From Terebella lapidaria (taxonomy: Eukaryota > Annelida > Polychaeta > Terebellida > Terebellidae), in contig OX424558.1 in NCBI GenBank assembly GCA_949152475.1, forward strand, positions 29,956,651 through 30,020,650: a DNA stretch of 64,000 bases. The letters are read 5' to 3'. How positions within the stretch are numbered: position 1 is the stretch's first letter; every line of letters starts with the position of its first letter. Shown here one piece after another: positions 47,883 to 54,000 of the stretch. Under the pieces are notes generated by a model. The model was not told the DNA's origin. It worked only from the letters and a program-made list of their open reading frames with translations, and ran no database searches. Position numbers and translations under genes: made by a program.

Positions 47883-48063
47883 TCAGACATTGAACATTTT
47901 CTTGACCGTATACCCTGGCATGTTGTATATCAACAGGAATATGAACAGAGCAAGCAAACCCAGAACAATCAACTTTATCAGAATCTTCTTAAAGCTCTTC
48001 CATATGATGAACTTACAGGTTTTCATTGGGTTCATGAACCACAAGAACGAGGTATCTGGCCGA
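47883..48063 (-). CDS. Ferlin terminal exon F (most distal)
   Basis: The acceptor is TATTTCAG; one base completes Asn, followed by 59 codons and TGA (47883-47885). The peptide starts [20 protein letters not shown], continues with a Lys-rich juxtamembrane stretch ([10 protein letters not shown]) and a hydrophobic span, and ends [13 protein letters not shown]. The YTVKK tail most resembles the vertebrate otoferlin end (PGYLVKK, from memory), so F and E may be nearest the ancestral form. Luminal tail charge is +2. Confidence 0.88.
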
Positions 48064-51000
48064 CTGAAATATGCATTTCAAAGAGTGGTATATAAAGAGT
48101 GAAGCATTATACAGTCTGCTTATTTCTTAAGTATGGTGATCAACTACTAGTATTTTACATTGAGTGTATAAAATCGAACTTAGATATATAACTGAACTTA
48201 AATAATGTGTATTATGTGTTGCTCCGATATGATATCAAATATGGAACAACGAGTAATTAATATGAATAAACACCAATTATTTTTTAAATATAAAATTTAA
48301 TAACAAATGAGTGCGTCACTATGTTTTCATATCGACATCATTTGTGACACATACAACAAATCACTATAATACCATTTCATTAGGCGAGTAATTTGTTATT
48401 GCACACACGATGCAGGTTTCATCTGGATCCATAAAATATGACAATGGCATGCCAACATATATTTTATATATTTTACATGCATTCAATCATGAACCACACA
48501 GAACATTTGAGGCACGATTTGTGGAGACTTAAGCATGTGACAGGTATAATAGCAAAATCCGCCATCTGTTATTTACAATATTGTCAACAATGATTTGTTA
48601 GTTATCAGTGTATGTACAAACAAATGCAAAAATATATAAAATTGCTACTATGATACAAAGTGGGCACAGCATAATTTTACTCAATACCGTATTATGTTCA
48701 GATACATCATTACAATATTCCATCAGCAGGTACGCGACAGAATTCTACATATATATTCAATATTCTACAGCATAGCACTAGGCCTACACATATCACAGTA
48801 TTAGCTACGTTCCAATGCAGCTTCACAGTCAATCATCTGCTACGGTCTATACAATCATTTATCACACATTTTCAGACGTTGAACATCTTCTTCACCGTGT
48901 AGCCGGGCATCGAGTAGAAGAAGAGGAAGATGAAGTAGCCGAGAAAGAGGATGATGAGTAGTTTGACGAGGAAAGGCATGAAACTCTTGCAGATGATATA
49001 TCTGCAAGTCTTTAGCGGGTTCATAAACCACAGGAATGACGTGTTTGGCCGGCTGTTTTTGTAATCGAATTTTGTTTCGTGGGTTAGTAGGGGCGTGGAT
49101 TGGGCGAACAGACAATACGATACTTAGTGTTAGTATAGTTTCTGTGTACATGCTCAAATAAATGCAAGAATAACTTGACTGTAATTATATGTCAATCTCA
49201 ATAGCTACGTCTCCTATACTTTTACATAGACAAAAATATCGATTATACAACACGCTACATGCCTTACAGTTTGTGAAAGGTACTCTACTGAGATTCATTT
49301 CTACTCACAGTTATTATAGGAAATACTAAGCTAGCAGCCAATACATAAACAGCTTTACAACACTTAAAGTCATTGCAAAAAGGATTAGTGATAGCATTAC
49401 CTTATCAAGTAAATTGTGGAAAAGCGGGTAAGAATTTGACAAGCGACAGTGCAGTTATGGGCGAAACGCTCGTGAGCGGCTAAGTAATAATTCTACATGA
49501 CAGCGACTTAGGGAACGAAGATACATTGCAGGATAAATCAAAATCATGCATGGTGAGGGCTTCACAATCCAAATACTTTGTTGACCATTGCGCCAGGGGC
49601 ATTGTAAACCATGAGAGTTATGAACACACCCAAGAGGGCAAGAATTAGCAGTTTTATCAGCAGCCATTTGTACTGTCTACAGATGATATATCTGAGGGTT
49701 TTCAGGGGGTTCATGAACCAGAGGAAGGAAGTATCTGGGCGACTGAAAGGAGAAGCAAACAGGAGAAACCATGAGGTAAATGTTGTAACCACCACACAGT
49801 GTCATATTTTAAGGTGACGCGATAGATATTTGTACATAATTTGAATTGTTCTGAAAGCAAAATAATTTAAACACGAAGCCGATGCATGCAAAAACCACCA
49901 GAGTTTTCATGCAAGAAAAAGGTCAGAGCAGTTTGGAATCCAACCTGAAAGCCAAAAGGAATTAATTGCGAAGCTGAAACATTCACCTCATGGATATGTT
50001 TTCCCAGTCACAGCTTCATATATTCATCCAAGGATGTCTTTCAATTTTTCTTTACAACTTTGTCAAAATATCATCATCAGGGATTTAGAATTTTATCTAC
50101 GATTGCCCCGGGAAAAGCATATACCATCAGAACAATGAAAGCAACGAATATAAGTATGATTAAAAAATTGATGAGAAACCACTTGTAGCTCTTGCAAATC
50201 AGAAAATATAGAGTCCTGAGTGGATTCAGCATCCACAAAAAAGACGCATCTGGCCGGCTGCAAATATGAGAGAAAGCCGGTTAGTGGTGGTTAATGTTTT
50301 GCCAAAATCCCACTTTTTTTAATATTGCATGTCATACCAATCCTCTGAAAGCAAATATATAAGCTAATCGTATTAGGAGTAAGCGGCATCTACACACATG
50401 TATGCGTTATCAGAGCTTTATCCGCTGCAACCAAGCTTTTAAATGTTTTGTGTATATTATCCAGATAATGTTCAGTTTTGCGAGAAAGCTGTATTAGGTT
50501 CTGCATTAGATACCCAGACAGAATCCAGTTCCCATCTACGCAGTCTGAAACTATAAGTGATCAGAAATTGTGTTAGAATCCAAGCTGTGGGCAGTACCCC
50601 ACACCTTGAGATACAATAAAATATCGAGGGGGCTGACACCCAGAATGCTAATACTGTTATGGTTTGACAATTTTTCAGAAGAGAGGGACAGATCGTTAGC
50701 CCCCGAACATTCTATCGACAATGACGCCAGGGGCCGCGTATATCATCAGGCCCAGGAAGAGCATCAGGAGAATGATCAGGAGCAACTTAGCGATCCTCGC
50801 CTTGAAGTTCCTGCAGATGATGTAGCGCAAAGATCGACAGGGGTTCAAGAACCACAGGAACGACGTGTCAGGGCGACTGAAATAGCAAAGTGGGAGGGGT
50901 GGTCAGGTACCAGCGGTGATGTGAAGAAAAAACTTAAAAGTTGGGGATGGAAATCATAATAGTTTTGAATGATATATGTTTGGGGAAGCCATATGCGGGG

Positions 51001-54000
51001 GTGGGGGCTGGGCGTGATTAGTAAATCAAGAATGTTATGGACCTATATTGTTTATGCAAAAAGCTCGCGTTATTCACATGAATAGACATCCATGTACTTC
51101 AATAATTCATGTGTGTATGGTTGTGACAGAAACATACATTCCATGTAAAGAGTGATCCCAATAATAAAATGTTGTTTCTGAACTGAAATGACTACTTGCA
51201 AAAAAAAAAACATGAATATATTCCATGGACAGCTATCGGCGCAAACCGAAACTCTTCATGATGTATCCAAAACAAGCTGATTACATAAATATAGAATACA
51301 TCGATGAATATATTTATGGGCATACTTCTAAAGCCATAGCATTTATCATACCAGTACTTGCATTTGTTAAAGACTGGTGAGTCCACGACCGGACTGCGTG
51401 GGGAAAATGTTAGGCAATTCTTTACACCAGTATATATATATATTAAATATATATAATCAGTGAGTAATTTATTCCTCCTGAGGATTTCTTACCTTTCCAT
51501 GTCTACATGTAATGGAGCTGTTCTATTACGACTGCTATTTTTGTCTTTATCTTTTTGTGATGATATTATGTATCTTTAAATAGTTCATTGACCAATCAAA
51601 GTTCCATATCAAATTTAGGAATCCATTAGCCACCGAACATTCTATCGACAATAACTCCTGGGGCAGCGTATATCATTAGCCCGAGGAACAATAGTATAAG
51701 TATTGTCAAAAGTAGTTTAGCTATCCTAGCCTTGAAGTTCCTACAGAGAATGTATTTTATCGAGCGACATGGGTTCAGGAACCACAGAAATGAGGTGTCC
51801 GGGCGACTGAAAAACAGGAACAAAGCATGCAAATCAACATGGTTAGTAAACGTCAGCAGACTAATATATATATATATCTGATGATTGCAGATGATAACAT
51901 ATGATTTTCGGGACACAAGAGTCTGTTGAAAAAAAAAGGAATAAATTAAGTTTTGTTTGAGAGGATTTGCGAAAAAAGTATATCAAATGTGTTTGTGTGT
52001 TAACGTTTATTCGATCATCATATAACACTCAAAATCAACTTTTAGTATTTCTTGTGTGAAAAGTTTTTATTCTACGGAGCCGCTGAGGGCCATGAAATAC
52101 GTGCATTTCTGACACATTATCATTACGTTCCCTAGCAATGTTATTCCCTCGCATTCTGGATCACATTATCTCAAAATGGGATCACATTTCTCGTGATAGT
52201 ATTTGTGGGTCCTCACTTTTTATTCCCTCGCGATTTTGTGGCAAAACTGGTGAAATCATGAGCGTCAGCCATAATAAGGGAACGCAAACTGAAATGCAAG
52301 CTAACGCAAAAAAAAAATCGCGGGGCAGCGAGATCTTGAGCGCAAGGGAAAGCAATAAAATCGAGTAGGAACACAAAAATATCGCGACGGAACGCAATAA
52401 CACTGTAGCAAAAATAGTTCTTCCTTGTCTTCTCAGCGGCTCAATAGTATTGTCAGTTTGTACTGCAAAATTTGAGTGATTTGGCTCTAAAGTCAAAGGC
52501 ATTGCTATACTCTGATTTTTCTAAGTTGGCTATCAAACCAATGTTGGATTTCAGTCTCGAGAATCTGAACATATTCGAGGATTTGGTCCTGCTTACATCC
52601 ATCAGGATTCAACATATTGTGATTTTGGACTTTCGGGGTGTAAGTCACATTCGGGGTGTATTCTACACAAACATATTGATTTCGAAAGATTGAACTGCTA
52701 CAAAACCGAGCAAATGCACAAAATTGTCTGCTGACCCAGAATTTGAATGACATGGCTAAATTTAACATTGGGGTAGACTGCCAACTTTTTCAATTTTCGC
52801 GATAGAAATCTGAAATTCGGTAGAAAATTGCAGTTTGAATTCCAGGTGAAGTATGCCAAGTTATAGAACAATACCGTTTAGCATCGCAAAAAATATCAGC
52901 GAAAAACAGTGTAAACGAGTGAGAAAAGTCAAAATATAGAATTTCGTATACAGGAATGAGCGCATTTTATTGTAGACTGCTGACTTACATTCCAAACGTT
53001 CGATTGTTTACATTCTATTCCAAGGAATCAAAACAAATATGCACTACTTTTTGTTTGATCAATCGTGTGTGAGTTTTGTTTTGACTACAAAAAAGTTTGA
53101 TCACTCTCGGTCTCCACAATATATCTTCACTCATCTTTTTTCATAAGCAGGTAATTGTTTTGAATATAAATGTGGATTTTTCTGTGCAAAAACTGTTCTT
53201 GAAACTGATTAATCATCATTTCTCAGTCACATGCCATGCTGCTGGGATGTGCGTTAATGAATTAAAACGAGCTGTCTGAAACTAACAGGGCTGAAACTTA
53301 TCAAATTAGAAAATTGCAGTCGTCGAATGCACACTGTTGTCTGAAATGAAAACAATTGTGTTAATAGAATGGAATCATTCTACATTACGCGCGCACAAGT
53401 GTCATCGCACATGTCTGAGGAGGCAAAAAAGTGATTACTTTTCAACTTAATGCAGATTAATATGGGGCCGTGTGCGAGGGTAGGTAGCCTAAATCATTTT
53501 TTATGATTCACATAAATATTTACACATATTCAGACATGATCACATGATATAATTACAGATATACTTTGATTGCAAATTGTTCGCCAAAGTTAATTCAGTA
53601 GAAACATATATACTAATCAACGTCATCAAATATATTTATAAAATATACACAGTGAAGCATAATTACATTTGCAGATGAATTTAAATACTTTTAACTGAAG
53701 TTTACATAAGCGTGTGTCGTGAATTACCGGGTAGCAAATATTAAGTAAATCACAAATGTACAAAATAAATCTATATGCGATGACTATGTACACTTGTCTA
53801 CATTTGTTATCTAGTACGTACTTTGGCTCAGGCAGGGCCTGGGGATCACTCCTGCCTAGACCGGCTGGGTCTCTCTCAGCATCCTCAGCCGGCAGCAACA
53901 GCAACTCCGCCTCTACTTTACCCTACAACAGCGAATTATGGGGCGATTTGTGATCATTGCATGGGTATACAATATATATAGCCTATTAATGGATATATGT

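What the first reader, a model, noticed from the sequence alone, without database searches (positions are those of the whole stretch)
47883..51806. Six tandem alternative terminal exons in an otoferlin-type ferlin gene
Seen: six minus-strand segments at 51626-51806, 50696-50876, 50077-50257, 49562-49742, 48872-49052 and 47883-48063. Each is exactly 181 nt, each follows an AG acceptor, each enters in the same phase from the donor at 53821, and each codes 59 residues plus its own stop. All begin RP(D/N)(T/A)SFLW, and all contain a basic juxtamembrane stretch, one hydrophobic span and a PG(x)xV tail. Known: vertebrate OTOF has two alternative C-terminal exons used in different tissues. Inference: this animal swaps six membrane anchors and luminal tails on one C2-domain body, perhaps to sort the protein to different compartments. 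Six intact frames of identical length argue against decay.
Basis: partly seen in the sequence, partly recalled or inferred. Interest (0 to 1): 0.93.

Follow-up and report, generated by a model that had tools for sequence, protein, structure and literature searches.

The report
Six swappable membrane tails, one ferlin
A gene of a probable segmented worm carries six intact, alternative final exons, each able to give the same calcium-sensing fusion protein a different membrane anchor, whereas the related human hearing gene has two.

Summary
Six minus-strand exons of exactly 181 nt follow one donor. Each has an AG acceptor and the same phase, and each encodes 59 residues plus its own stop. All six match Pfam Ferlin_C above cut-off. 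A profile search finds no seventh or decayed copy in the window. The array is old and constrained: pS is 0.59-1.01 against pN 0.07-0.38 over 15 pairs, and a codon model with omega fixed at 1 is 106 log units worse. Flanking introns share nothing. The gene spans about 45 kb with one body. In a body tree it is a second otoferlin paralog grouping with Capitella and Owenia, so the animal is probably an annelid. The same genome holds a canonical otoferlin with two such tails and a dysferlin/myoferlin-type gene with one. Best reading: alternative terminal coding exons choose the anchor, an enlarged form of vertebrate OTOF exons 47/48. Usage, regulation and sorting are untested, because no RNA data were available. 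The 59-residue length is normal for the family (158 of 209 distinct tails).

The parts
56938..57065 (-). common coding exon (start of a C-terminal C2 domain)
   Evidence: AG acceptor, GT donor, in-frame join; C2 hit in Pfam
56488..56658 (-). common coding exon (C2 domain, continued)
   Evidence: otoferlin alignment
56064..56221 (-). common coding exon (dsrm_Ferlin region)
55713..55941 (-). common coding exon
55299..55448 (-). common coding exon
54801..54991 (-). common coding exon
54299..54495 (-). common coding exon
53822..53922 (-). last common exon; donor AAA|GTACGT available to all tails
51626..51806 (-). tail exon t1 (Cys21 type), 59 aa + stop
   Evidence: (40.2 bits Ferlin_C)
50696..50876 (-). 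tail exon t2 (Cys21 type), 59 aa + stop; 90% identical in protein to t1
   Evidence: (43.7 bits)
50077..50257 (-). tail exon t3 (Cys21 type), 59 aa + stop
   Evidence: (50.5 bits)
49562..49742 (-). tail exon t4 (Cys21 type), 59 aa + stop
   Evidence: (56.5 bits)
48872..49052 (-). tail exon t5 (Cys21 type), 59 aa + stop; weak pyrimidine tract, TACTAAC upstream
   Evidence: (44.1 bits)
47883..48063 (-). tail exon t6 (Trp21 type), 59 aa + stop; AATAAA 127 nt after the stop
   Evidence: (62.5 bits)

Best explanation
This is the 3' end of a second otoferlin paralog of a probable annelid. One multi-C2 body is spliced from the donor at 53822 to one of six homologous terminal coding exons. Each tail exon supplies a basic juxtamembrane segment, a single transmembrane helix and a 9-residue luminal end after a conserved Pro-Gly, then a stop. 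Because each exon carries its own stop, the first tail exon included sets the C-terminus. Choice therefore needs only skipping of upstream tails, as when OTOF exon 47 is skipped to use exon 48. Shown here: the anatomy, the homology and the long purifying selection on the set. Inferred: that all six are used, that use differs by cell type, and that the different anchors (Cys/Trp at residue 21, further Cys at 13 or 16, luminal charge 0 to +2) place the same calcium sensor in different membranes.
For: Six in-frame exons join to one body. All six match Ferlin_C above cut-off, and the body matches otoferlin best in the PDB (545 bits). Selection: pS 0.59-1.01 against pN 0.07-0.38 over 15 pairs, third codon positions changed most in all 15, and t1/t2 31.0 synonymous against 10.0 nonsynonymous changes. 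Omega fixed at 1: log-likelihood -1083.5 against -977.0 free, free estimate 0.019, which is rough because synonymous sites are saturated. There are no decayed copies in the window. Genome-wide, Ferlin_C over cut-off marks three genes with 6, 2 and 1 tails, and profile scans of 60 kb at C3 and 40 kb at C9 add no further tail (minus strand, plus strand). The C3 otoferlin repeats the plan with two 59-residue tails in the same phase. Literature: OTOF exons 47/48 are tissue-biased, and the two anchors localise differently in HEK293 cells (PMC10394277, passages read; PMC7768390, section 5 read).
Against: There is no transcript evidence for any junction. The t5 acceptor has a poor pyrimidine tract (0.35). 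Donor-like and AATAAA sites after tails 1-5 occur about as often as the window background (0.92 and 0.64 per kb), so how each mRNA ends is unknown. No shared selector motif was found (best motif 11 total mismatches, 12 null runs 9-12). No protein among the 120 listed rows (182 hits in all) carries a clear orthologue of t1, t2 or t3, so conservation of the array in relatives is not shown. Protein clusters at 90% identity can hide isoforms. The six tails do not form one clade in the best trees, though this is not rejected (p-AU 0.158).
Confidence: 0.85

Rival explanations
1. Only one or two tails are spliced in practice; the others are well-preserved relics.
For: No RNA data are available. t5 has a weak acceptor, and t3 is a long branch in the trees.
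Against: Synonymous sites are heavily changed while frames, length and key residues hold in all six. No frameshift or internal stop occurs in any.
Confidence: 0.08
2. The exons act as regulatory stop-carrying exons: their choice sets mRNA stability (nonsense-mediated decay) rather than the anchor.
For: Every tail carries a stop. Donor-like sites 90-133 nt after the stop of t1-t3 could leave downstream junctions.
Against: Selection acts on the protein sequence, and every tail is a Ferlin_C match. The donor-like sites are at background density.
Confidence: 0.05
3. The repeats are an assembly or recent-duplication artefact.
For: t1 and t2 look alike (77% nucleotide identity).
Against: Flanks are unrelated, even t1/t2 differ at 31.0 of 42.8 synonymous sites, and spacing is unequal. 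The locus sits inside a 48 Mb contig.
Confidence: 0.01

Closest known systems
Vertebrate OTOF exons 47/48 (TMD2 brain, TMD1 cochlea)
   Same: Alternative homologous exons give a ~60-residue C-terminal anchor on one otoferlin body, and exon 47 carries its own stop. In vertebrate proteins where both tails are joined, one has Trp and the other Cys at residue 21 (P0010; P0158), as in t6 against t1-t5.
   Different: Two exons rather than six. Those joined proteins suggest the order Trp then Cys; here it is five Cys then Trp. A clade of own Cys-type tails with four vertebrate Cys-type tails is weakly rejected (p-AU 0.027).
Tandem duplicated exon substitution events (236 human events, 77 C-terminal; PMC9741552, passages read)
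   Same: Homologous neighbouring exons swap one protein region; C-terminal cases are enriched and often coincide with transmembrane helices; convergent origins are described, e.g. tropomyosin 3' exons.
   Different: The passages read name three tandem 3' exons in tropomyosin genes; here six membrane anchors. OTOF, otoferlin and ferlin do not occur in that paper's main text.
Canonical otoferlin of the same genome (contig C3)
   Same: Two terminal exons, 59 aa + stop each, same split codon, Cys-type then Trp-type.
   Different: Two tails; identity to Lingula otoferlin 1021/1501 aligned residues against 738/1458 for the window gene (chained tblastn pieces).
Drosophila misfire (ferlin)
   Same: Ferlin gene with tissue-specific promoters and alternatively spliced transcripts (PMC1853072, passages read).
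   Different: 3' RACE found one polyadenylation site; the passages read report no array of alternative anchors.

Membership tests
Ferlin family | Ferlin_C terminus (PF16165) in each tail | tested here: met
   40.2-62.5 bits, cut-off 29.4, 6 of 6
Ferlin family | Several C2 domains before the anchor | tested here: met
   Two C2 stretches in the 501-residue window part; further pieces upstream align with Lingula otoferlin from its residue 1, with gaps between pieces
Ferlin family | Single C-terminal transmembrane helix | tested here: met
   One uncharged run of 16-18 residues from residue 31 in all six; sequence-based only
Otoferlin subfamily | Body closer to otoferlin than to dysferlin/myoferlin | tested here: met
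   Otoferlin 545 bits, dysferlin 461; on the otoferlin side of the tree (SH-aLRT 100, quick tree)
Canonical otoferlin orthologue | Groups with the usual lophotrochozoan otoferlins | tested here: not met
   Groups with Capitella, Owenia P0254 and unnamed P0001 at SH-aLRT 100; the C3 gene sits with Lingula (88) and molluscs (91) (quick tree)
Tandem duplicated exon substitution event | Homologous adjacent exons, interchangeable phase | tested here: met
Tandem duplicated exon substitution event | Transcripts use the exons alternatively | not testable with these tools
   No RNA data in the collections used
OTOF exon 47/48-type alternation | Common descent with the vertebrate pair | tested here: inconclusive
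   59-residue trees are poorly resolved: C3 Cys tail with Lingula and ten other, deuterostome-type Cys tails not rejected (p-AU 0.371), C3 pair as each other's nearest not rejected either (0.166); own Cys tails with vertebrate Cys tails weakly rejected (0.027)

The most novel reading that the evidence does not exclude
A six-way anchor code: one calcium-sensing fusion protein is addressed to different membranes or cell types by swapping its tail helix. The array grew inside an annelid otoferlin duplicate from a Cys/Trp pair like that still present in the animal's canonical otoferlin, and that pair, or the Cys21/Trp21 switch, either predates or repeatedly re-evolved beside the vertebrate brain/cochlea pair. 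ACTAAC motifs before t1, t3 and t5 could let a STAR-type splicing factor choose among them. Against a clean inheritance of the two types: t5 (Cys) groups with t6 (Trp) at 97-99% bootstrap.
Probability: 0.3. Interest if true: 0.78.

Novelty: new variant of a known kind. Interest (0 to 1): 0.56.

Why it matters
Why OTOF keeps two anchors is an open question: their tissue distribution rests on RT-PCR and Northern blots and awaits confirmation at protein level (PMC10394277). A set of six anchors on one body, with a two-anchor and a one-anchor ferlin in the same genome, is a natural experiment. It shows which anchor residues vary and which stay fixed under long selection, and it makes 'does the tail helix set the address?' directly testable by swapping 59-residue tails.

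Tried and rejected
A seventh or decayed tail, with an ORF near 51391 as candidate: no Pfam hit and nothing above noise in the window profile search.

A fourth ferlin: the genome search listed a below-cut-off match on C11 (28.1 bits, 2 stops). In 20 kb there, tblastn with four ferlins and the tail profile found nothing. Weaker listed matches (19.9 bits or less, away from the three genes 19.4 or less) were not followed.

Shared selector or docking motifs: none beyond null.

Cassette versus own-polyA for each tail: donor-like and AATAAA sites are at background, so undecided.

ACTAAY before tail acceptors: 3 of 6 tails (t1, t3, t5) against 0 of the 8 other acceptors of the window part. A rougher automatic scan of all three genes placed acceptors by the nearest AG to a tblastn start: 2 of 37 in the window gene, both at tails t1 and t3 (it missed t5, which one search shows), 1 of 30 in C3, 2 of 26 in C9. 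The comparison was post hoc, so it stays an idea.

Flank control: the shuffles (50) used one pair of upstream flanks only.

Single clade of the six tails: not in the best tree, 5% and 0% of bootstrap trees, but not rejected (p-AU 0.158). In one search rows Misgurnus_X4, Microplitis and lgn_P0001 were dropped as long branches; Fer1L6 and jgi_P0100 as well. Six own tails plus Owenia: p-AU 0.171. Six own tails plus both C3 tails as one clade: p-AU 0.04.

In one search I tested Capitella + Owenia + own C4 without the row lgn_P0001, which falls inside that group; it was rejected (p-AU 1.8e-5). The four-row group is the one supported (SH-aLRT 100, quick tree).

Literature searches for this array listed no paper on it. 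They cover only open-licence PMC papers, I saw listings only (some capped: 20 of 48, 12 of 46, 12 of 3068, 12 of 112), and the rows held no otoferlin. The direct search for otoferlin with annelid found 2 papers: Lek et al. 2010, which lists two Capitella ferlins, one numbered 184805 like P0122, without mention of alternative tails in the passages read, and an unrelated primer.
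Full report
Observation. The six segments exist exactly as described. Each is 181 nt on the minus strand, follows an AG, and encodes 59 residues plus a stop in the same frame. Eight common exons in the window (57065 to 53822) join in frame through AG/GT sites to each tail, giving six products of 501 residues that differ only in the tail. The shared donor is AAA|GTACGTAC, and every tail completes an Asn codon (AAT or AAC). 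A profile of 58 collected tails (the six own tails among them) scores the six exons at 88.8-102.5 bits and the next of 2189 window ORFs at 8.0 bits.

What it is. The body's best PDB match is otoferlin (545 bits), ahead of dysferlin (461). Pfam finds C2, dsrm_Ferlin and Ferlin_C, and each tail alone passes the Ferlin_C cut-off (29.4 bits) at 40.2-62.5 bits. The window holds only the 3' end. In the animal's genome (762 Mb, 438 contigs) the gene runs on the minus strand of C4 from about 30049730, where a Met-led stretch aligns with residue 1 of Lingula otoferlin, to the last tail at about 30004536, with one set of body pieces and six tails. Exons upstream of the window were placed by tblastn only, with gaps between pieces.

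Age and selection. Over all 15 pairs of tails, pS is 0.59-1.01 and pN 0.07-0.38, and third codon positions changed most in every pair. The most similar pair, t1/t2, has 31.0 synonymous changes over 42.8 sites against 10.0 nonsynonymous over 134.2. Fixing omega at 1 costs 106 log-likelihood units on the six exons; the free estimate is 0.019 but rough, since branches are saturated. The 300 nt on either side of the tails share nothing beyond shuffled sequence (local scores 17-26, maximum of 50 shuffles of one pair 28). The copies are old, separately kept and not decaying. The shared length is no extra argument: among 355 fetched proteins, 334 have a tail, 209 distinct, and 158 of these are 59 residues long (21 proteins had no recognisable tail).

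Relatives in the same genome. A genome-wide Ferlin_C search (20 listed matches at E 10) finds over cut-off the six window tails, two tails on C3, one on C9, and linker exons of C3 and C9. A below-cut-off match on C11 proved not to lie in a ferlin gene. The C3 gene is the canonical otoferlin: 1021 of 1501 aligned residues identical to Lingula, against 738 of 1458 for the window gene. Its two tails are 59 residues plus stop, in the same phase, first a Cys type, then a Trp type. C9 is a dysferlin/myoferlin-type gene with one tail. In a quick tree of bodies without tails, the window gene groups with Capitella, Owenia P0254 and an unnamed sequence (SH-aLRT 100), while C3 sits with Lingula (88) and molluscs (91). 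The only named members of the window gene's group are annelids, so the animal is probably an annelid with an old second otoferlin. Capitella also has the highest identity among the 120 listed full-length-range matches of the body (60%; by score a Rotaria protein ranks first at 45% identity).

Anchor anatomy. All six keep RP..SFLW, NP and the Pro-Gly at 49-50, and the uncharged run starts at residue 31 in each. They vary in the juxtamembrane stretch (net charge +3 to +6), in cysteines at 13, 16 and 21, and in the luminal end, which falls into four kinds with net charge 0 to +2. Residue 21 is Cys in t1-t5 and Trp in t6. The same Cys/Trp difference appears between the two tails of vertebrate otoferlins (P0010; P0158) and in the C3 pair. 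Of 209 distinct tails, 167 have Trp and 40 Cys at residue 21. Trees of 59 residues cannot settle whether the pairs share descent, and t5 (Cys) groups with t6 (Trp), so the two types are not clean lineages here.

How it probably works. Each tail has its own stop, so the first tail spliced in fixes the C-terminus and no strict mutual exclusion is needed. In OTOF, exon 47 with its stop gives the brain form and skipping it gives the cochlear form; in HEK293 cells one anchor was dispersed and the other mainly at the plasma membrane (PMC10394277, passages read, citing others; PMC7768390, section 5 read). By analogy, the worm's gene selects one of six anchors. Which tails end at their own poly(A) site and which run on to a later exon cannot be told from sequence. 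An ACTAAC-like motif precedes t1, t3 and t5 but none of the other eight acceptors of the window part, and is rare at acceptors of these genes in a rougher scan; it is a good branch site and (recalled) also a binding site of STAR proteins. This was found after looking and is only an idea.

Comparison. Human genes have 236 annotated tandem duplicated exon substitution events, 77 of them C-terminal, and convergent origin is described; OTOF is not mentioned in that paper's main text (PMC9741552, passages read). Lek et al. 2010 (PMC2923515, passages read) treat ferlin domain evolution and include two Capitella ferlins; 'terminal exon' does not occur there. My literature searches (listings only) showed no report of an array like this. 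It is a new, larger variant of a known arrangement, with strong evidence for constraint on the parts and none yet for their use.

Noticed in passing
46530-47290 and about 52100-52470: A palindromic element filled with a 21/43-nt GCGTTCCCTCGC minisatellite (long arms 94-99% complementary) lies below the last tail, and a related diverged stretch (72% over 104 nt) lies in the intron above the first tail, so copies bracket the array. The outer limits are by eye; a genome search for more copies did not complete.
   Followed up: partly
59468-60377 and 62944-63831: Two similar plus-strand, coding-like copies lie inside a ferlin intron on the opposite strand; no Pfam match at E 0.01.
   Followed up: partly
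2-1111: An open 370-residue plus-strand frame at the window edge without a Pfam match at E 0.01.
   Followed up: partly
P0235 (Misgurnus otoferlin isoform X4): This fish otoferlin cluster ends in a tail very unlike the other vertebrate tails seen, perhaps another alternative terminal exon or a gene-model fault.
   Followed up: no
upstream of 51806, 50257 and 49052: ACTAAC at -41, -28 and -36 of three tail acceptors; that of t5 sits before a very poor pyrimidine tract.
   Followed up: partly
G000 C3:55639199-55645342: The canonical otoferlin has its own two-exon tail pair, Cys type before Trp type, the reverse of the order suggested by joined vertebrate proteins (P0010, P0158).
   Followed up: yes
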